Source of the DNA: Oceanicola sp. 502str15
GTDB lineage: Bacteria > Pseudomonadota > Alphaproteobacteria > Rhodobacterales > Rhodobacteraceae
Direction: 5' to 3'
Length of the DNA: 64,000 bases
Assembly: GCF_024105635.1 (NCBI RefSeq)
Contig: NZ_WYDQ01000001.1
Location: 1,674,001-1,738,000, forward strand
Below are positions 40,391 through 49,421 of the stretch, piece after piece. Under the pieces are notes generated by a model. It had not been told where the DNA came from. It saw nothing but the letters and a program-made list of their open reading frames with translations, and ran no database searches. Made by a program: the position numbers and the translations under genes. How positions within the stretch are numbered: position 1 is the stretch's first letter; every line of letters starts with the position of its first letter.

Positions 40391-40552
40391 ATGAACGCAA
40401 TTCTCGCCTTCCTCGCCTTCGCGGTTTTCGCCGCGTTCGCCGCGATCCTCGCCTTCGAAGTCCCCAGCCCGGACCTCGTCGTGGTCATCCTGCTGACACT
40501 GGCCCTCGTCGCCTACGACTTCATCACCACCATCTTCAACCGACGCGACTAG
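40391..40552 (+). CDS. 53-residue small membrane protein
   Basis: ATG at 40391 with AAGGA at 40377-40381 gives 53 residues. Two hydrophobic segments (AILAFLAFAVFAAFAAILAF and VVVILLTLALVAYDFITTI) make a helical hairpin, followed by the charged end NRRD. It begins 14 bases after the amidase stop, so it belongs to the TRAP-amidase operon. Function unknown. Confidence 0.65.
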   Translation: MNAILAFLAFAVFAAFAAILAFEVPSPDLVVVILLTLALVAYDFITTIFNRRD

Positions 40553-40885
40553 CCTCGCGGCTTGCCGCAAGGGTTTGGCGGTCGACCTAAGATGGCGCAC
40601 CTCGGCTGTCTGCGTTTAAGCATGGCTCAGGTGTGGCCAAGAGGAAGCTTGGCCCACTCCCAGACCTGTTCCGCGCGCAGTCAGACGATCAATGCAATGC
40701 GGTCATGACAAGCGGGAGAGAGCGGTACGACAAGACCGGCAGATCGCAACGAACACCACACCGAAAAAGCCAACAACCTTCGGCTACCGGAACTCCGCCA
40801 CCGGATACCCGTGCAGAAATCAGTAGCTTCACAATCTCCGCCCCGGAAGACACAGAGATCGAAGTCCTGCATTGGAAGGTTTGAA
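40553..40885. other. 333-base gap before the integration scar
   Basis: No recognisable gene. An open frame from 40633 to 40884 is unlike any family I know, lacks a ribosome site and has a low-complexity composition, so I do not call it. The segment is chromosomal flank left of the element. Confidence 0.4.
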
Positions 40886-40930
40886 TGGTGCCCCCACACG
40901 GACTCGAACCGCGGACCCACTGATTACAAA
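40886..40930 (-). repeat. attL: displaced 3' half of tRNA-Thr
   Basis: These 45 bases match 39 of 45 positions of 49346-49390, the 3' half of the intact tRNA-Thr. The last 17 (gacccactgattacaaa, 40914-40930) are identical and are the probable crossover core. Read on the minus strand it encodes part of the anticodon loop, a paired T arm with its own compensated sequence, the acceptor strand and CCA, but no 5' half follows, so it is not a functional tRNA. It is the original chromosomal 3' end pushed aside by the insertion. Confidence 0.8.
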
Positions 40931-41086
40931 CTCCTTCGCGGCACTTCACCGTGATTTACCAAACAGCCGCCAAACTGTTGACTTATTTACCGAATATTCC
41001 TTCAATTTACCGGAGAACACCATGGCAATTTACCGCCATTTACCGGCAGAGTGTGTCCTATACGTGTCCTAAACGGTGGAGGCGAG

Positions 41087-42289
41087 ATGAGTGCGAAGCG
41101 GTTCGAACCGCCACACGGTGAGGTTCGCCTAAGCAAAAGATCGATTGAGGCCCTGCCAGTCGTCGGCAGGGAGTACTACATCCGCGACCTCGAAGTTCCC
41201 AAGCTGCACATTAAGGTGTCCGCGGCGGGTAAGAAGACCTTCGTGCTTCGCTACAACTCAACTTTCTCTCGTGGCCGAAAGTACAAGCTGGGCGACTTCC
41301 CTGACCTCAGTATCCAAGCAGCACGTCGGCTTGCCGCGCGCACGCTCCTAGAGGTTGCCAACGGTAACGACCCGTCGGAGGTGCGCCGTCGCAATCGCAG
41401 CAACATTACTCTTGGCGAAGTTGGCGAGCGTTTCATGGAAGAACATGCGCAACTTCACCTCCGCCCTTCGACTGTAGCCAGCTACTGGCAAATCTTACGC
41501 GCCAATGTCTTTCCCCGCTTCGGGAACCGCCCCCTGCTGTCGATTTCAAAGCAAGACATGCAAGCGCTTCAGCGCGACATGCAGGCAACAAGATATGCGG
41601 CCAACAGAACACTGGGGCTCGTTGGAAGATTGTACAATTGGGCGGCAGACAACGGCTTGCATCCTAAGGGCGACAACCCAACCAACGGCATCAAGCAGTA
41701 CAAGGAAAAGCTGGTTGAGCGGCTCCTTTCAACGGAAGAGATGCGCCGGGTTGCGGAGGCGATCGATTGGGCAAGGGCGAACCATCCCGGTCGGGAAGCG
41801 GCGCTCAACGCAATTGTCTTCATGTTCTTCACTGCCTGTCGGCGTGGTGAAGCGTTCAATATCCAATGGGACCATGTGGATTTCGAACGTGGGTTAGTCC
41901 ACTTCTACGGCGCGAAAACAGGCGACCGGGATCAACCTCTAACCGAAGATCTGCGCGACTGGCTGTTAGAGCTGAGAGAACGTGCTCAGACCCCTCACAT
42001 TTTTCCCGGAAGAAGTATCGGCAAACCGCTGACTGACATTAAAAAGACGTGGGACCTCGTGCGCCAGCGAGCGGGCATACCCGAACTACGGTTGCACGAC
42101 ATCCGGCACAACGTTTTGTCAGACATCGCCAGCGAAACGGACGTGGCGACGGCTCAGGCCGTGGGCGGCCATGCCAACATGCGCTCTACCATGCGATACC
42201 TTCATGCCCGGAAATCAACGATGAACACGGCCCTCACCCAAGCCGGAAGGCGCGCGGCGAGCGTGTTCTTCGATACAGGAGACACATGA
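41087..42289 (+). CDS. int: tyrosine integrase
   Basis: A 400-residue site-specific recombinase. Residues 1-95 form the arm-type DNA-binding domain seen in integrases of tRNA islands (VPKLHIKVSAAGKKTFVLRY then YKLGDFPDLSIQAARRLA). The catalytic part has the Arg in TACRRGEAFNI, HDIRHN (His, Arg), GHANMRSTMRYLH with the second His and the Tyr. GGAGG at 41078-41082 precedes ATG 41087; an upstream alternative start at 41051 has no ribosome site. It is 157 bases inside attL and presumably catalysed insertion into tRNA-Thr. Confidence 0.93.
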   Translation: MSAKRFEPPHGEVRLSKRSIEALPVVGREYYIRDLEVPKLHIKVSAAGKKTFVLRYNSTFSRGRKYKLGDFPDLSIQAARRLAARTLLEVANGNDPSEVRRRNRSNITLGEVGERFMEEHAQLHLRPSTVASYWQILRANVFPRFGNRPLLSISKQDMQALQRDMQATRYAANRTLGLVGRLYNWAADNGLHPKGDNPTNGIKQYKEKLVERLLSTEEMRRVAEAIDWARANHPGREAALNAIVFMFFTACRRGEAFNIQWDHVDFERGLVHFYGAKTGDRDQPLTEDLRDWLLELRERAQTPHIFPGRSIGKPLTDIKKTWDLVRQRAGIPELRLHDIRHNVLSDIASETDVATAQAVGGHANMRSTMRYLHARKSTMNTALTQAGRRAASVFFDTGDT

Positions 42290-42775: not shown

Positions 42776-43381
42776 ATGCGATCCAATTCTCCGGTGGCGA
42801 CATCTTCGGAAATCTCAGCTAAACCGAGATTAACCCTTGCCAAGCTACGTGGCCCAGTAATCCTGTTGTTTGCCGTCGTAGTCTGGGCACCCATCGCCTA
42901 CATGGCCACGATAGGGGGGACCTCAAGGGCGGAACTGGATGCAGCTTTCAGGGATGATCGCCCCCTTGTCGCCCGCATGGCAACTAAAAGAGACTTCGCT
43001 CATAGCCTAGACTCAGTTTATGCCAGTAGTATTTCCCGCGCCGAACCGGTTCTGATAGCCGCAGAAGAGTCAGTTCGCAGTCAGCTTCGTGATCCAGACA
43101 GCGCCACCTTCGAAAACATGGCGTTTAACTATGCCCCGTCCAACAGGCGCTGGTTCGTGTGCGGCACTGTAAACGCCCGAAATGGATTTGGCGGCTATGC
43201 AGGCCCGAAGGAGTTTGCAATCGGCCTCATAGGGGAAGACATTGACAATCGCATCTCATTCGGCAACGTCGAGATTTTCCCAGCGCTTTCAGAAGGTCAG
43301 TCTGACAGTCAATGGGACTCGACTTTGAATAATGTAAAACGCAAATGTGGTCTAGCCGCATCACTTCGAATGCTGCGCTAG
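42776..43381 (+). CDS. membrane-anchored hypothetical protein
   Basis: 201 residues with one membrane helix near residues 25-47 (GPVILLFAVVVWAPIAYMA) and a soluble C-terminal part. That part holds SQLRDPDSATFENMAFNY and VCGTVNARNGFGGYAGPKEF, a pattern I have seen in small uncharacterised proteins of phages and mobile elements with the consensus LKDPxSAxF...CGxVNAKNxFGGYxG. Function unknown. No clear ribosome site. It lies between the integration module and the resolvase. Confidence 0.65.
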   Translation: MRSNSPVATSSEISAKPRLTLAKLRGPVILLFAVVVWAPIAYMATIGGTSRAELDAAFRDDRPLVARMATKRDFAHSLDSVYASSISRAEPVLIAAEESVRSQLRDPDSATFENMAFNYAPSNRRWFVCGTVNARNGFGGYAGPKEFAIGLIGEDIDNRISFGNVEIFPALSEGQSDSQWDSTLNNVKRKCGLAASLRMLR

Positions 43382-43732: not shown

Positions 43733-44383
43733 ATGGAAAACCCTAGATTTATCTCCTACATCCGCGTTTCGACTGATCGACAGGGCAAAAGCGGTCTCGG
43801 ACTTGAAGCCCAGCGCTCAGCCGTGAAAAATCACCTACTGGCCAACACGGGCGAACTTCTTGCAGAGTTTGTCGAGGTCGAGAGCGGCAAGAAGAACAAC
43901 CGTGAAGAGTTGAACCGGGCGATCGCTCAATGTCGTGCCACAGGTGCAAAGCTCATTATCGCCAAACTTGATCGCCTCGCCCGGAATGTGCACTTCATCT
44001 CGGGCCTATTAGAGAGCGGTGTCGCCTTCTGCGCCGCCGACATGCCCAACGCCGACCGTTTCATGCTCCACGTCTACGCCGCAATGGCGGAAGAGGAAGC
44101 TCGCCGGATTAGCCAACGGACGCGGGAGGCCCTCAAAGCGGCCAAAGCACGCGGCGTAGCGCTGGGCACGGCCTGCGGGGCGCTCGCGGCACGGAATGCA
44201 GCGGAAGCAGACCGTGCGGCGCAGAAAATCGGCCCGGCAATCGCGGAACTCAAGGATCAAGGCCTATCCATCAGAAAAATCGCAGATCGGCTCAATTTCG
44301 ACAAGGTTCTCACCGAAAATGGCGGCAAATGGCACCCAACATCAGTTCAGCGGGCCTATCAGCGCTTTTGTTCCTTACCATAG
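43733..44383 (+). CDS. serine recombinase (resolvase/invertase family)
   Basis: 216 residues. The catalytic Ser is in SYIRVSTDRQGKSGLGLEAQ; the supporting Arg residues are in KLDRLARNVHFISGLLESGV, and the C-terminal HTH reads LKDQGLSIRKIADRLNF followed by WHPTSVQRAYQRF. Length is that of a small resolvase. It may resolve multimers or have moved the cargo, and it sits immediately before the tandem repeat and the RT operon. Confidence 0.9.
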   Translation: MENPRFISYIRVSTDRQGKSGLGLEAQRSAVKNHLLANTGELLAEFVEVESGKKNNREELNRAIAQCRATGAKLIIAKLDRLARNVHFISGLLESGVAFCAADMPNADRFMLHVYAAMAEEEARRISQRTREALKAAKARGVALGTACGALAARNAAEADRAAQKIGPAIAELKDQGLSIRKIADRLNFDKVLTENGGKWHPTSVQRAYQRFCSLP

Positions 44384-44415
44384 GGTCTCCCCCAACTATA
44401 GGGTCTCCCCCAACT
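44380..44415. repeat. tandem 18-bp repeat before the RT operon
   Basis: atagggtctcccccaact occurs twice head to tail at 44380-44397 and 44398-44415, directly after the resolvase stop and 4 bases before the ATG at 44420. A third, shorter match (GGTCTCCCCC) lies at 44482-44491. Such a repeat array could bind a protein (iteron or operator) or be the resolvase site. Confidence 0.75.
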
Positions 44416-44419
44416 ACCA

Positions 44420-45799
44420 ATGGCACGGTACCCACTAAGACATCGAGAAGATTTCGTTAGGCCACTCACACCTGGCCTGCAGGTCTCCCCCTCCAGCGGC
44501 ATGGTGGACAGGGCAGAAGTTAGTTTCGGGAATTGGGAGCTACCCGGCACCATCCAAGAGGTCACTCAAGGCCTTAATCAGCTCAGAAATTTTCCCTTCC
44601 ATACCCACGACGACCGAGAGATACCGCTCTTTCGACATGGACTAGTTGATGGAAGACGACTTCACCCCGAAGTCTACTTCGACAGCGGCACAGAGGAGGA
44701 TGATCGTATCACCGGGGAGAGGCCACTAATAAGCGGCAGAATATCTTGGGTTCCCCGGCGCAGCATCCCGGTTGATCAGAGAAGTGAACACAAACAGTTA
44801 CGATTTTATGCAACGGTCAACATCACCCGATTTATTCAAGCTCAAGTAACACGGCCCGTCAGGAGCGATAACGGCATCAGGCTGCGCCATATCCCCACAT
44901 TGGTCATGTCTCCCCGCGAACATTGGTACCGTGAAGAAGCGCCCCTCGTGCCGTCCACAAACATGATCGCTGGCAGTGTCCTCAAATACAGTGAGGCGTT
45001 GAGGCGACCAGCCAGCGAGCACTTCACACGCCTCATGGCCCTCTGGACCGCACAGCTCGATCATAGCGTTTGCTGGGCCTTCTCGGAACTTCCTAGCACG
45101 CCCGTTCAACATCCGAATTTTTCTCTACGCGAAATCGAGTACTACTGGGAGTTCGACTCAGAAAACGCCATTGACTTCGTGCAAGCGATTGCAAGGCCCA
45201 TGAGCAGCCTGAGTGGCACAATTTATGTCGGCGGGGAACGTGTCAGATTGCCTGAGCATACGGTGGAGTTTCAAAGTCCCAGCGTAAAGGTTGTGCTCGC
45301 GCGAGATGTGACGCTGAAGGCCTACGCCAAGACACTGCAACGCGTCCGATTTGAAGTTACGTTCGGAAAGCGTGGTATTGAAGATAGCCTTGGCAGGCGG
45401 AGGGTCTCTCCGAGGCGCACAGCCACGGGCATAGAGGAGCTGGCAGAGAAGGTCGCCGTTCTCCAAAGCGCTGCCACTGACTACTTCAACGAAGCACTAC
45501 CGCGCATCCTTCCTAGCGAGCCGCCGGAAAGCACACTTGAAGTAATGGACTTGCTAACTCGTATAGGTGTCTGCGCGGATGGGGACGCCCGAATTGCTGA
45601 GACCATAGCAAGCGCATTAGCGAACTTTGGGCGAGTTGAGCCCTACGCCAATGACCCGATCTATCCAGCGGTCTCGCGCCTGAGGCGCACTCGCGTACTG
45701 GAGAGCGTTCGTCGCCGTAGCCGCGTGAATGTGGTTACGGCTCAGTACCGCTCAGCCTTGCACCAACTGCAACGACTGCGCGTAGTTACTGACACATAG
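44420..45799 (+). CDS. unrecognised 459-residue protein, first gene of the RT operon
   Basis: I do not recognise the family. No signal peptide or membrane helix is visible. Residues 297-315 (VTLKAYAKTLQRVRFEVTF) recall a stretch found in some phage/plasmid replication initiators, 'LK.Y.K..RIR.EV', but catalytic residues of such enzymes cannot be assigned. The last 45 residues are very Arg-rich. Neither ATG 44420 nor ATG 44501 (codon 28) has a good ribosome site, so the start is uncertain. Its TAG stop is followed immediately, in the same frame, by the first RT. It is thus either a separate cofactor gene or the N-terminal part of an interrupted fusion. Confidence 0.7.
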   Translation: MARYPLRHREDFVRPLTPGLQVSPSSGMVDRAEVSFGNWELPGTIQEVTQGLNQLRNFPFHTHDDREIPLFRHGLVDGRRLHPEVYFDSGTEEDDRITGERPLISGRISWVPRRSIPVDQRSEHKQLRFYATVNITRFIQAQVTRPVRSDNGIRLRHIPTLVMSPREHWYREEAPLVPSTNMIAGSVLKYSEALRRPASEHFTRLMALWTAQLDHSVCWAFSELPSTPVQHPNFSLREIEYYWEFDSENAIDFVQAIARPMSSLSGTIYVGGERVRLPEHTVEFQSPSVKVVLARDVTLKAYAKTLQRVRFEVTFGKRGIEDSLGRRRVSPRRTATGIEELAEKVAVLQSAATDYFNEALPRILPSEPPESTLEVMDLLTRIGVCADGDARIAETIASALANFGRVEPYANDPIYPAVSRLRRTRVLESVRRRSRVNVVTAQYRSALHQLQRLRVVTDT

Positions 45800-47167
45800 T
45801 TGCTAGCTGAACGACTCCCTGATCTACTGTCCTCGCGTCAGGGTCAGACCCTACCGCCCATGTTGCTTCTACTAACAGTCGAGTTCAGAAAATTGATACC
45901 GTCGCCTTATTCGACCGAAGCTCTAAAAAACTGTGTCAGGGTAGGAGACTCCGGTCGCTGGCACGTAGATTTGGAAGCAGACATTGAAACTATAGTATCG
46001 TCTGCTGCTGCTAACGCAACGACAGAAAAGCCGACACTCTCTATTTCAGCTAAACTTGACAAATCGGGCAAAACCATCTTTTTTGCAGGTGATTTCGAAA
46101 CCGACCTAATCCTAAGAGCGACATTCCGACGGCTCGTTCGGAGATTTGGCATATACTTGCCAAACAGAGAGGCAATCGTCAGCGGCATCATAGAAGCAAG
46201 CAGCGAGGCATCTCCTTTCAATGTAGTTCGGTGCGACATAAAATCCTTCTACGAAAGCTTAGACGCGAAGCCGCATATCGAAAGGATCCTTGCCGACACA
46301 CGCACAAGCACTGAGTTGAAAAATGTGCTTAGAGCGGTATACGACACTACAGGGTTGCCAGTAAGCACTGCCCCCAGAGGATTGGCATTCAGCTCCGTGA
46401 TAGCAGAAATGACTCTACGCGACTTTGACAAGAAAATACGGAAGTCCCCAGGCATTCATCGATTTTTCCGATACGCCGACGATATTCTCGTATTCTCTTT
46501 GCCGCATGTCCCGGTTCTGAAAATTTTACAAGCAGAACTCACCAGCTTAGGCTTAGAGCTTAACAAAAAGACAGAGCAGTGCAGCGTTGCATCTCAAAAG
46601 ACCTCGCGGAATGTACCAACGTCTTATCGCCACTTTAACTATCTCGGATACAACTTTCGGACCTTGGAGAACGTCAAGAGCTACGAGAGCCGAGAGCTTA
46701 ACGTTTCCATTTCCCGGGCCAAGCTTTCAAAGCGCAAAACACGACTCTTCTATGCGTTACACGCGTTCAAAAAGGATGGTGATGCAGAAATTCTCTTGGA
46801 CAGATTAAGCTACCTAAGCGTGAATCGATCTGTGTTTAAGACAAAGCACACCCGAGGTAGCCGTAGGCAAAAAATCCGAACGGGGATCCACTACAATTAT
46901 GCGAGGTGTGGCTTTTACCCGTCCACAAAACACAGGAGAAAAAAAGAGGAACACTTGGCAGCCGAGCTTGTAGAATTGGATGTCGTGTTGAAGAATGCGT
47001 TGTTCGGTCAGAACAGTGAGTTTGCGGAAGGCATCTCTAAACTTCCGACTGCAACCTACGATTCTCTCTCAAGGGTCTCTTTTGCTCAAGGCTTTAGGAA
47101 GCGACTTATGAAGCGGTACAGCAGGGCACGTGTGGCAAAGATTTGCAAGGTATGGGGCCATGACTGA
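45800..47167 (+). CDS. reverse transcriptase 1 (DRT3a/UG3-like candidate)
   Basis: 455 residues if the TTG at 45800 is used, 435 from ATG 45860. All RT palm motifs are intact, numbered from the TTG: A, CDIKSFYESLD with Asp146; B, GLPVSTAPRGLAFSS 185-199; C, RYADDILVF with Asp227-Asp228; D, LGLELNKK 250-257; E, NYLGYNF 280-286. There is no maturase or endonuclease domain, so it is not a group II intron RT. It is compact, followed by a second RT overlapping by 8 bases. By size, pairing and motifs it fits the first RT of antiphage DRT type 3; family assignment needs a profile search. Confidence 0.85.
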   Translation: MLAERLPDLLSSRQGQTLPPMLLLLTVEFRKLIPSPYSTEALKNCVRVGDSGRWHVDLEADIETIVSSAAANATTEKPTLSISAKLDKSGKTIFFAGDFETDLILRATFRRLVRRFGIYLPNREAIVSGIIEASSEASPFNVVRCDIKSFYESLDAKPHIERILADTRTSTELKNVLRAVYDTTGLPVSTAPRGLAFSSVIAEMTLRDFDKKIRKSPGIHRFFRYADDILVFSLPHVPVLKILQAELTSLGLELNKKTEQCSVASQKTSRNVPTSYRHFNYLGYNFRTLENVKSYESRELNVSISRAKLSKRKTRLFYALHAFKKDGDAEILLDRLSYLSVNRSVFKTKHTRGSRRQKIRTGIHYNYARCGFYPSTKHRRKKEEHLAAELVELDVVLKNALFGQNSEFAEGISKLPTATYDSLSRVSFAQGFRKRLMKRYSRARVAKICKVWGHD

Positions 47168-49124
47168 AATCGACGACAAACTTTCTCTACTGCGGGCCTT
47201 ATTGACCGAGACACTGCCATATGAGTTACCTCTCGGATTTACCAACGAGAACCTCTTCCTATCAGAACTCAGGATCGATGAACTTTCCGACGGACAGAAG
47301 CTAGCGCTTAAGAAGCTCCGGCGAGAGCGCAGTGATTACACTCGACCATTTCTCTACAAGATAAATCGCTCGTCACGCACTAGAAACACGCTAGCAATTA
47401 TTCACCCTAATGCTCAACTCCGCATCGCTGAGTTTCTTCCTGACTTTGAGCAAACCATCGTTCAAGCATGCACGCGCAGCCCCTACTCAATCCGTTTTCC
47501 GTCAGAGCCAATTCGAGTATATACCAAGGGCAGCACATCTGACGTCCGCAAGCGCTGGAGACTCGGCCTGCCGGAGCAAGCTGTTGGGGATAGAATCACT
47601 ACACCCTATTCGCCCTCCTACTTCGGGTATCGAAAATACCTGCTGCTTGAGAGATTCTTCACTTCGAACGAGCTGGTTCGCCTCGAGAGTCGATTCCGAT
47701 TCTTGCGCACATTGGACATCTCAAGATGCTTCCCTAGTATATATAGCCACTCTATTACTTGGGCACGAAAGGAAAAGGGATTCTCAAAGGACAATAGTAG
47801 TAAGTATTCTTTTGAGCAGCGGTTTGACGAGCTTATGCAGAAGGCAAACTACAATGAGACAGCCGGGATAGTCGTAGGTCCGGAAGTATCAAGGATCTTT
47901 GCTGAAGTCATCCTTCAGTCCGTAGACATAGAAGTTGAGCGGCGGGCTGAGGAAAGGGAACTTGTTTCGGGCAGGCACTACGAAATAAGGAGGTACGTAG
48001 ATGATTTCCATATCTTTACTCGCAACATGGACGATCGCGATACCCTGACGGATATTCTTTCAGACGTCCTCGAAGAATATAAGCTCTATCTCAATGTGGA
48101 GAAGAGCCAAGACTTAGAACGCCCGTTCATCACTAGTATCTCAAGAGTCAAGTATGAGGTCACGTCCGTATGTGAGTCCTTGGTAACGTCACTGACGTCA
48201 GAGTTCGTCCCACCAACAGAGGCGACTGCAACACCCTCGGAATCAGTGGTCTTGGGCCGCAAGGCACTTGACGCAGTTCGTCACTTGGGCGGTTCCGAGC
48301 GAAGCGATCTACTCAAATCACTTTCTGAAGTATTCACCGCCCTACAAAGAGTGCTGAAAAGCCTGAAGGAAAATATGAGCGACAGCTTGGAACTCGAGGA
48401 AGTGAGGACCGAGTTTCTTGATAGACTAAAACTTTTGATCAGGGTGTTATTCTATGTACTGTCACTGGATTTTCGAGTCCCGCCTTTAATACGTGCGGCT
48501 TTTATTGTGGAGGGCATAATACGCCTGTCGAATAAGCTGCCTCAGTCGGAGCGGCTCGCAACACGCGCATATTTAGCCTATGAACTCAGTGAATTGTTGG
48601 GCGCGAACTATGACGGTTTGAGCGGCCCGGTTTCGTTGGAAAATTTGAACACCTTCCTTTTAGGCCTCATGGTTGACCCTACGGCATTTTGCCTACAGTC
48701 GCCTGCGCGCAACTTTATTGACAACGTCATGAAGGGCACCCAGCACGGCTACTTCGCAGCTCTGGCAGGTCTACACTATCTCAACAGCACAAGCCCAACT
48801 GAAGTCGCCCCCTCCGATCCTCTTAGCGAGGCCGACCGCCGACAAGCTTTTGTCGTCGCGTTGATAGACTACATTGGGTCTGGAGATTGTGATCCTGTCG
48901 TAGACAGCGAGGACTATCTTCTGTTCTGTGATGCCCTGTCTTGCCCAGCGCTCGATAGCGACATCAGGTGGTCTACATTCAACCAGAAGTTAGGTGGCCA
49001 AGAGCTGTCGAAAGCGGACTTCCAAGAACTGACCAAACACTTCCGGCATACTAACTGGACCTCAAGTGATGATAAGTTTCAGCTCCTCTTTCGCCGGTTG
49101 CCGCCAGTGTACTTCTCGTCGTAG
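47160..49124 (+). CDS. reverse transcriptase 2 (DRT3b/UG8-like candidate)
   Basis: 654 residues from ATG 47160, which overlaps the RT1 stop (ATGACTGA) with AAGG at 47147-47150. RT motifs: A, LDISRCFPSIY with Asp186; B, GIVVGPEVSRIFAEVILQ 236-253, the 'GPE.SR.FAE' form typical of Abi/UG-group RTs; C, RRYVDDFHIF with Asp281-Asp282; D, YKLYLNVEKSQ. The last 330 residues are largely helical with no known nuclease motif, as in AbiA/AbiK and UG-type RTs. An alternative GTG at 47130 adds 10 residues. Likely acts with RT1 in phage defence (inference). Confidence 0.86.
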   Translation: MTEIDDKLSLLRALLTETLPYELPLGFTNENLFLSELRIDELSDGQKLALKKLRRERSDYTRPFLYKINRSSRTRNTLAIIHPNAQLRIAEFLPDFEQTIVQACTRSPYSIRFPSEPIRVYTKGSTSDVRKRWRLGLPEQAVGDRITTPYSPSYFGYRKYLLLERFFTSNELVRLESRFRFLRTLDISRCFPSIYSHSITWARKEKGFSKDNSSKYSFEQRFDELMQKANYNETAGIVVGPEVSRIFAEVILQSVDIEVERRAEERELVSGRHYEIRRYVDDFHIFTRNMDDRDTLTDILSDVLEEYKLYLNVEKSQDLERPFITSISRVKYEVTSVCESLVTSLTSEFVPPTEATATPSESVVLGRKALDAVRHLGGSERSDLLKSLSEVFTALQRVLKSLKENMSDSLELEEVRTEFLDRLKLLIRVLFYVLSLDFRVPPLIRAAFIVEGIIRLSNKLPQSERLATRAYLAYELSELLGANYDGLSGPVSLENLNTFLLGLMVDPTAFCLQSPARNFIDNVMKGTQHGYFAALAGLHYLNSTSPTEVAPSDPLSEADRRQAFVVALIDYIGSGDCDPVVDSEDYLLFCDALSCPALDSDIRWSTFNQKLGGQELSKADFQELTKHFRHTNWTSSDDKFQLLFRRLPPVYFSS

Positions 49125-49203
49125 AATCCGTGTGGCGGTGGAGTTCTTGTGCTAGAGCGCCAACGGTGCTTGCACCTGCGGCTTAGCCGAAGCGGATGTG
49201 AAA

Positions 49204-49251
49204 GCGGATGCGGAGGCATACTACACACATAAGCGCGTTCTCCATCGTCGC
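49204..49251 (+). ncRNA. candidate template RNA with ACACACA in a stem-loop
   Basis: The 221 bases between the RT2 stop and the tRNA contain no gene. GCGGAT-gc-GGAG (49204-49215) pairs with CTCC-ATC-gt-CGC (49240-49251): 10 pairs with two 2-base bulges. The 24-base loop holds ACACACA at 49223-49229. Upstream are smaller hairpins: GGTG/CACC around CTTG, and CGGC/GCCG around TTA, both within 49165-49200. A structured RNA with an ACACAC template is what I recall for DRT3; position and strand are inferred, and ends are not determined. Confidence 0.45.
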
Positions 49252-49345: not shown

Positions 49346-49421
49346 TGGTGCCCCCAGAGAGACTCGAACTCCCGACCCACTGATTACAAATCAGTTGCTC
49401 TACCAGCTGAGCTATAGGGGC
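49346..49421 (-). tRNA. tRNA-Thr (anticodon UGU)
   Basis: 76 nt including encoded CCA. On the minus strand the acceptor GCCCCTA pairs with TGGGGGC, D stem GCTC/GAGC, anticodon stem ACTGA/TCAGT with loop TTTGTAA (anticodon TGT), T stem GGGAG/CTCTC and TTCGAGT loop. The 3' half up to 49390 belongs to the inserted element and restores the gene, while the displaced original 3' half lies at 40886-40930. Confidence 0.95.

What the first reader, a model, noticed from the sequence alone, without database searches (positions are those of the whole stretch)
44420..49124. Three-gene operon with two different reverse transcriptases plus an unknown protein, in a tRNA-borne island
Seen: a 459-residue unknown protein, then two RTs with complete catalytic motifs (YADD Asp227/228; YVDD Asp281/282), overlapping starts and no maturase, intron or DGR signs. 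Known: antiphage DRT type 3 pairs a UG3 with a UG8 RT, one compact and one about 650 residues, as here. As I recall it is a two-gene system with an ncRNA. Inferred: this is a DRT3-like system with an extra upstream gene that might be a new effector or adaptor. The location in a small mobile island with an integrase fits a defence cargo.
Basis: partly seen in the sequence, partly recalled or inferred. Interest (0 to 1): 0.88.

Follow-up and report, generated by a model that had tools for sequence, protein, structure and literature searches.

The report
DRT3 antiphage system plus orphan gene
This is a complete copy of a known bacterial antivirus system (DRT3: two reverse transcriptases and a small RNA that together make repetitive DNA) on a mobile island, and the extra gene next to it looks like a rare passenger of that island, not a new part of the system.

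Summary
The three ORFs are real and at the stated places. RT1 is Drt3a and RT2 is Drt3b, both above NCBIfam's curated cut-offs. The third known DRT3 part, an ncRNA with an ACACAC template loop, lies just downstream of drt3b (core 49132-49251), and its helices are kept in the three nearest relatives with DNA in hand. So this looks like a complete DRT3. The extra 459-residue gene is real but almost unique: two relatives found in 5.8 billion proteins, 95% and 85% identical. It is absent from 19 of 19 other tandem drt3a-drt3b loci examined. Alignment with the nearest loci breaks down before drt3a, and its GC is nearer to the island's recombinases than to drt3a/b. It is most likely island cargo or backbone, not a DRT3 effector; one diverged copy does seem linked to a Drt3a. 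A replication-initiator origin is a weak lead. One real oddity: this Drt3b and its three nearest relatives have Asn where 14 of 14 other aligned Drt3b have the Arg that stacks on the incoming adenine (R71 in the published structure).

The parts
44420..45799 (+). orphan gene, 459 aa, no family; probably a passenger or backbone gene of the island
   Evidence: no hit in Pfam, NCBIfam, PADLOC or PHROGs, and one meaningless PDB hit at E 1.4; only P0001 and P0002 in the protein database
45893..47167 (+). drt3a, RNA-templated RT (frame open from 45800; 10 of 12 homologues start at the codon matching TTG 45893)
   Evidence: NF041747 308 bits over cut-off 200; alignment A4; matches Drt3a chain 9z6y_A
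47160..49124 (+). drt3b, by homology a protein-primed, protein-templated RT
   Evidence: NF041748 474 bits over cut-off 350; E22, D186, R245, YVDD, Y651 fill the places of the published E22, D182, R241, YVDD, Y666; N76 in place of R71
49132..49251 (+). DRT3 ncRNA core: closing helix P1 (49132-49143 with 49240-49251), inner helix P2 (49149-49153 with 49232-49236); true ends unknown
   Evidence: two pairs changed on both sides between the window and the three relatives
49223..49229 (+). ACACACA template loop of the ncRNA, 98 nt after drt3b
   Evidence: ACACAC downstream of drt3b in 18 of 18 other tandem loci with a 3'-complete drt3b
41051..42289 (+). tyrosine integrase of the island
   Evidence: PF00589 and PF13356
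42277..42597 (+). small HTH protein (excisionase-like)
   Evidence: HTH_17 26.3 bits, just under its cut-off 27; phrog_66 E 3e-4
43733..44383 (+). serine resolvase/invertase, ends 36 nt before the orphan gene
   Evidence: PF00239 97.6 bits
40885..40930 (.). left end of the island: copy of a tRNA-Thr 3' end
   Evidence: 46-nt direct repeat, 87%
49346..49421 (-). tRNA-Thr (TGT) at the right end of the island

Best explanation
The locus is a complete type 3 defence-associated RT system (drt3a, drt3b, downstream ncRNA) carried on an 8.5-kb integrative island in a tRNA-Thr gene. By homology to the published systems, Drt3a copies the ACACAC loop of the ncRNA into poly(GT), and Drt3b, primed on its C-terminal tyrosine (Y651 here), makes poly(CA) with amino acids in place of a template. 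The strands anneal, and their accumulation on infection stops the cell. The 459-aa gene before drt3a is not part of this module: it belongs to the island and came to sit next to the cassette. Shown here: gene identity; catalytic, priming and gating residues except R71; the ncRNA motif and helices; absence of the 459-aa gene from the other DRT3 loci examined. Inferred: enzymatic activity, product and defence; that the 459-aa gene is dispensable.
For: Curated models for both RTs passed, PADLOC agrees. Drt3b residues E22, D186, R245, YVDD and Y651 are kept. ACACACA 98 nt after drt3b, with two helices kept by paired changes, and the motif 41-221 nt after drt3b in 18 of 18 other tandem loci with a 3'-complete drt3b. 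0 of 19 other tandem loci carry the 459-aa gene. Alignment with the three nearest loci in hand breaks down upstream of drt3a, while drt3a and drt3b are about 45 and 51-52% identical to theirs. GC of the 459-aa gene is 55.5%, against 57.1 and 57.8% for integrase and resolvase, 53.3% for the 201-aa gene, and 47.5 and 49.7% for drt3a and drt3b. Published mechanism: PMC13174585 (Results parts 1 and 2 of 3 and Discussion read).
Against: A second, diverged copy of the 459-aa gene (P0001, 95%) and a 98% identical Drt3a (P0003) have the same longest-contig length, 7714 bp, so the two genes have very probably stayed together at least once. All these genes run the same way with short gaps, so co-transcription is possible. 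Nearer relatives of this Drt3a (56-63% identical, six named genomes) were seen as proteins only, so their upstream genes are unknown beyond the lack of a database relative of the 459-aa protein. The window's Drt3b has Asn at the R71 place; R71A left no detectable product in cells in the E. coli work, so full activity is not assured. The ncRNA stretch as a whole does not fold better than shuffles (z -0.67 for the window, 0.12 for L039), and the covariation rests on four sequences, two nearly identical (35 of 500 shuffles reach it).
Confidence: 0.8

Rival explanations
1. Three-component DRT3: the 459-aa protein is a lineage-specific partner (effector, sensor or regulator of the repeat DNA), co-expressed with drt3a-drt3b.
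Against: Absent from 19 of 19 other tandem loci, including three of the same branch; no relative found in the protein database although Drt3a of 56-63% identity from six named genomes are there; its other relative lies on a contig for which no Drt3a was listed, which is inconclusive since the gene may sit at the contig's end; base composition is nearer the recombinases.
Confidence: 0.12
2. The 459-aa protein is a much diverged phage/plasmid replication initiator of the gpII/CRI kind, that is, a gene of the island itself. (This fits the best explanation; it is a rival only as to what the orphan is.)
For: By eye, from recall of such proteins, residues 238-316 follow the order of the CRI family. 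hhalign without realignment picks 238-305 against 134-192 of a 13-member CRI alignment, score 22.6, reached by 1 of 150 column shuffles (mean 16.0, largest 24.6; unrelated Drt3a and Drt3b alignments give 15.3-16.1). hmmsearch in maximum mode pairs LKAYAKTLQRVRFEVTF with the Y-x-K...RFE stretch of the CRI profile.
Against: No significance: hhalign probability 1.2%, HMMER E 0.16 for the window protein. In hhalign's ordinary mode the real alignment scored 1.4, below at least ten of 60 shuffles (6.3-11.6) and the reversed one (3.0). Against the single CRI protein L158 hhalign chose another, unrelated register. The family was picked by eye beforehand, so the shuffle figure is not corrected. A strict motif taken from the orphan is in 0 of 13 CRI members. 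No Pfam hit at E 10.
Confidence: 0.22
3. The DRT3 copy is a decayed or altered-specificity version: Asn at the R71 place weakens or shifts nucleotide choice by Drt3b.
For: Asn in 4 of 4 members of this branch against Arg in 14 of 14 others; R71A product undetectable in cells in the E. coli study.
Against: The other gating, catalytic and priming residues are kept; the ncRNA template is still ACACAC, so a matching CA strand is expected; the branch is a well supported clade (FastTree 1.000) with open frames in four records; a basic residue (Arg or Lys) sits one place earlier and could stand in.
Confidence: 0.1

Closest known systems
DRT3 (UG3 + UG8 RTs with ncRNA): the E. coli system of PMC13174585, and solved chains 9z6y/9z6z and 26cz
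   Same: Gene order drt3a-drt3b-ncRNA; both RT families; ACACAC template downstream of drt3b; E22, R241, YVDD and priming-Tyr places filled as published
   Different: Drt3b only 23-30% identical to the 14 aligned members outside its branch; long separate branch; R71 place is Asn; an unrelated 459-aa gene stands before drt3a
DRT3 of Phaeobacter inhibens M633 plasmid NZ_CP081244, Roseivivax sediminis and Wenxinia saemankumensis
   Same: Nearest relatives with DNA in hand: Drt3b 51-52%, Drt3a about 45% identical; same 8-nt overlap, same ncRNA helices, same Asn at the R71 place
   Different: No 459-aa gene; other surroundings
Drt3a of Hoeflea sp. Naph1, Neorhizobium galegae, Saliniramus fredricksonii and others
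   Same: Closest named Drt3a, 56-63% over residues 35-250
   Different: Known here as proteins only; their loci were not seen
Phage replication protein CRI (PF05144)
   Same: Possible order of weak sequence similarities with the 459-aa protein
   Different: Not significant; not filed as a member

Membership tests
DRT3 | UG3-type RT (Drt3a) over the curated cut-off | tested here: met
   NF041747 308.3 bits, cut-off 200
DRT3 | UG8-type RT (Drt3b) over the curated cut-off, adjacent | tested here: met
   NF041748 474 bits, cut-off 350; 8-nt overlap
DRT3 | ncRNA downstream of drt3b with ACACAC template loop | tested here: met
   ACACACA 49223-49229, helices P1 and P2 kept in three relatives. Expression not tested; Rfam at gathering level finds only the tRNA
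DRT3 | Drt3b nucleotide-gate residues E22 and R241, C-terminal priming Tyr | tested here: met
   E22, R245, Y651; the correspondence to published numbers is my own reckoning from the alignments
DRT3 | R71 stacking on the incoming adenine (a supporting residue in the published work, not a stated defining feature) | tested here: not met
   Asn76 in the window and three relatives, Arg in 14 of 14 others
DRT3 | makes poly(GT) and poly(CA), protects from phage | not testable with these tools
   needs experiment
DRT3 with a third protein component | 459-aa gene recurs beside DRT3 | tested here: not met
   0 of 19 other tandem loci; against this, one probable linked second copy by equal contig length
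Phage_CRI replication initiator (for the 459-aa protein) | profile match at curated score | tested here: not met
   no Pfam hit even at E 10; hhalign probability 1.2%
group II intron or retron RT | RT over the cut-off of such a model, or intron RNA nearby | tested here: not met
   group II 54 and 37 bits against 300, retron 34 and 26 against 235; Rfam finds only the tRNA
diversity-generating retroelement | template/variable repeat pair and accessory gene | not tested
   no separate search was made; both RTs pass DRT3 models instead
tRNA-borne integrative island | integrase next to a duplicated tRNA 3' end | tested here: met
tRNA-borne integrative island | clean empty site in a relative | tested here: inconclusive
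   of four same-genus genomes, the left flank lies about 2.1-2.2 Mb away in G942 and G1090, on another contig in G1226, and has no full match in G1035

The most novel reading that the evidence does not exclude
In one narrow lineage DRT3 has recruited a third protein, the 459-aa orphan of no known family, which acts on or senses the (GT/CA) repeat DNA, and its Drt3b has an altered adenine-stacking position (R71 to Asn).
Probability: 0.1. Interest if true: 0.65.

Novelty: new member of a known kind. Interest (0 to 1): 0.3.

Why it matters
It is a clear, complete-looking DRT3 from a distant branch in which both RTs, the template RNA and the gate residues can be compared with solved structures. 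The natural Asn at the R71 place gives an immediate test of how Drt3b chooses adenine without a template. It also warns against reading a neighbouring orphan gene as a new system component.

Tried and rejected
Structure of the 459-aa protein: AlphaFold2 on three sequences gave mean pLDDT 30 and pTM 0.19, meaningless, so no fold search was run.

Homologues of the 459-aa protein: tblastn in plasmids and phages, no match; 299 genomes of the phylum, only the window's own; viral and genome contigs, pattern hits but none confirmed. The protein searches found P0001 and P0002 only (in one search only the 7994 candidates sharing most words were scored).

Replication-initiator idea: tested with 13 CRI proteins; suggestive only, with some controls against it. 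I lowered its odds from 0.25 to 0.22 when I looked again. L157 (a short frame) was not used; L159 (Rep_trans) was read but not compared by a tool.

Viral contigs with the Drt3a alignment: 391 of 496 pattern hits were RT relatives; the 80 kept are 23-34% identical over short stretches and were not examined further. With Drt3b, none confirmed. Promoter scan: 5 sites against 4.6 in shuffles; no terminator found.

More DRT3 of the closest branch: Hoeflea, Neorhizobium, Saliniramus and others are known as proteins but their DNA was not reached; two more genome draws found only Wenxinia again or nothing new. The Drt3b model is over its cut-off in 5 of 385 class genomes and 5 of 394 family genomes, the window's own counted in each.

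Rows dropped or added: L058 (Paenibacillus) was first counted as a DRT3 locus; on recheck its two RT genes are divergent, its Drt3b-like protein lacks the C-terminal Tyr, and no ACACAC follows within 332 nt, so it is left out of the 19; it too lacks the 459-aa gene. L046 (drt3b broken) and L047 (drt3b cut short) are in the 19 but not in the Drt3b residue counts; L047 is not in the ncRNA count of 18. L002-L005 and L022-L025 repeat L040-L047 and were not counted again. L054 and L055 are nearly identical. L147 and L148 were fetched and not used; L146 repeats L055.
Full report
What is there. On the + strand the window holds a 459-aa ORF (44420-45799), an RT frame (45800-47167) and a second RT (47160-49124). 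The RTs are Drt3a and Drt3b by curated models: NF041747 at 308 bits (cut-off 200) and NF041748 at 474 bits (cut-off 350); PADLOC gives the same names with E 7.8e-89 and 4.4e-141. Both match the solved chains of 9z6y named Drt3a and Drt3b, and Drt3b also matches 26cz. The real start of drt3a is probably the TTG at 45893, where 10 of 12 homologous proteins in A4 begin, 93 nt after the 459-aa stop; P0003 is predicted from the ATG matching 45860, and P0006 starts earlier.

The third known part is present. PMC13174585 (abstract, passages, Results parts 1 and 2 of 3, and Discussion read) describes DRT3 as drt3a, drt3b and an ncRNA downstream of drt3b with a conserved ACACAC loop. In the window ACACACA lies at 49223-49229, 98 nt after the drt3b ORF. 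The motif follows drt3b within 41-221 nt in 18 of 18 other tandem loci with a 3'-complete drt3b (L039-L046 and L048-L053, L054 and L055, L056 and L057). L047, whose drt3b is cut short, and L058, which is probably not a DRT3, have none. ACACAC as such is not rare (7 in the window against 14 expected), so the argument rests on its place and surroundings. In the window and the three nearest relatives in hand, two helices flank it. P1 (12 pairs) has two pairs changed on both sides and one on one side; its outermost pair is lost in the relatives. P2 (5 pairs) has two one-sided changes and pairs in every cell. 95.6% of cells pair, against 26.5-61.8% when slid; 35 of 500 shuffles reach the covariation value. 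With four sequences, two nearly identical, this is support and not proof. The whole stretch does not fold better than shuffles (z -0.67 for the window, 0.12 for L039).

Residues. In the published Drt3b, E22 and R241 gate dA and dC, R71 stacks on the adenine, D182 and D278 bind metal and Y666 primes. I placed these by counting in the printed alignments; that the 26cz construct is the published protein with an offset of 108 is my reckoning. The window has E22, D186, R245, Y279-V-D-D282 and Y651 in those places. At the R71 place it has Asn76, as do L039, L054 and L055 (4 of 4), while 14 of 14 other aligned Drt3b have Arg. These four form a clade with support 1.000 on a long branch. A basic residue stands one place before. 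In the E. coli work R71A and R71K reduced synthesis and only R71K gave product in cells. I did not see this natural Asn mentioned in the passages I read (one search showed 12 of 24 places).

The 459-aa gene. It has no family in Pfam (E up to 10), NCBIfam (E up to 1), PADLOC or PHROGs (E up to 10), and its one PDB hit (E 1.4) means nothing. In a database of 5.8 billion proteins two relatives were found: P0001 (95% overall, contig 7714 bp) and P0002 (85%, contig 3379 bp); the search sees only proteins sharing short exact words. One of 41 Drt3a hits, P0003 (98%), has the same longest-contig length 7714, so there the two genes are very probably linked; none has 3379, which is inconclusive since P0002 may sit at a contig end. 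tblastn of the gene on the loci in hand at that point gave nothing better than E 0.11, and that in L034, which is not over the Drt3b cut-off: 0 of 19 tandem drt3a-drt3b loci (L039-L057) and not in L058. Of seven annotated plasmid records, one (Bacteroides finegoldii, L053) lists a co-directional gene within 100 nt before drt3a, a 146-aa hypothetical; six do not, the nearest relative L039 among them (PLSDB gene tables are incomplete). L054 and L055 are unannotated; they have small mechanical ORFs (103-165 aa) on that strand before drt3a, which do not match the 459-aa protein. The alignment upstream of drt3a breaks down by eye. GC is 55.5%, against 57.1% (integrase), 57.8% (resolvase), 53.3% (201-aa gene), 47.5% (drt3a) and 49.7% (drt3b).

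What the orphan might be. By eye, from recall, its residues 238-316 resemble gpII/CRI replication initiators. With 13 CRI proteins, hhalign without realignment gave score 22.6 (1 of 150 column shuffles as high; probability 1.2%) and HMMER E 0.16. In ordinary mode hhalign scored 1.4, below at least ten of 60 shuffles and below the reversed alignment; against one CRI protein alone it chose another register; and a strict motif from the orphan is in none of the 13. I leave this as a lead. The structure model is meaningless.

Island. An integrase at 41051, a small HTH protein, a 201-aa protein and a resolvase precede the orphan; a tRNA-Thr bounds the right end and a copy of a tRNA-Thr 3' end lies at 40885-40930. 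Four same-genus genomes have the tRNA and right flank (87-89%). The left flank lies about 2.1-2.2 Mb away in G942 and G1090, on another contig in G1226, and has no full match in G1035, so no clean empty site was shown. G1035 carries the left-copy variant in its own tRNA-Thr (98% over 48 nt), which fits exchange of tRNA ends by such elements. None of these four has a Drt3a match at E 1e-30.

Literature. PMC8934634 (passages only) reports 97% of UG3 RTs beside a UG8 RT. Third genes in DRT3 were looked for with the paper search (listings) and by word in two papers: 'accessory' and 'third' do not occur in PMC13174585, 'accessory' and 'third gene' not in PMC13314766. No report of one was seen; the library holds open-licence papers only. 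PMC13314766 was seen in passages only, and Deng et al. 2026 only as cited there.

Verdict. A complete-looking DRT3 of a distant branch with an orphan neighbour: known system, new member.

Noticed in passing
44377-44412: Two tandem 18-nt repeats (94% alike) shortly before the ATG of the 459-aa gene, possibly an operator; the first begins inside the resolvase gene's end.
   Followed up: no
42776-43381: 201-aa ORF of the island matches PHROG 2320 (unknown function), E 6e-18.
   Followed up: no
L043, L045: Their Drt3b have YVDN in place of YVDD, although the frames are open.
   Followed up: no
   Followed up: no
L054, L055: Nearly identical DRT3 cassettes in Roseivivax sediminis and Wenxinia saemankumensis, which suggests recent transfer.
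   Followed up: partly
L058, 5458-8920: Paenibacillus antarcticus: two divergent RT genes resembling Drt3a and Drt3b, the latter without the C-terminal Tyr and without ACACAC in the 332 nt after it; perhaps a different two-RT arrangement.
   Followed up: no
40552-40930: In two same-genus genomes the left flank lies over 2 Mb from this tRNA-Thr, so the junction may also mark a chromosomal rearrangement.
   Followed up: partly
P0001: The second copy of the orphan has a different C-terminal end (about the last 18 residues) from the window's.
   Followed up: no
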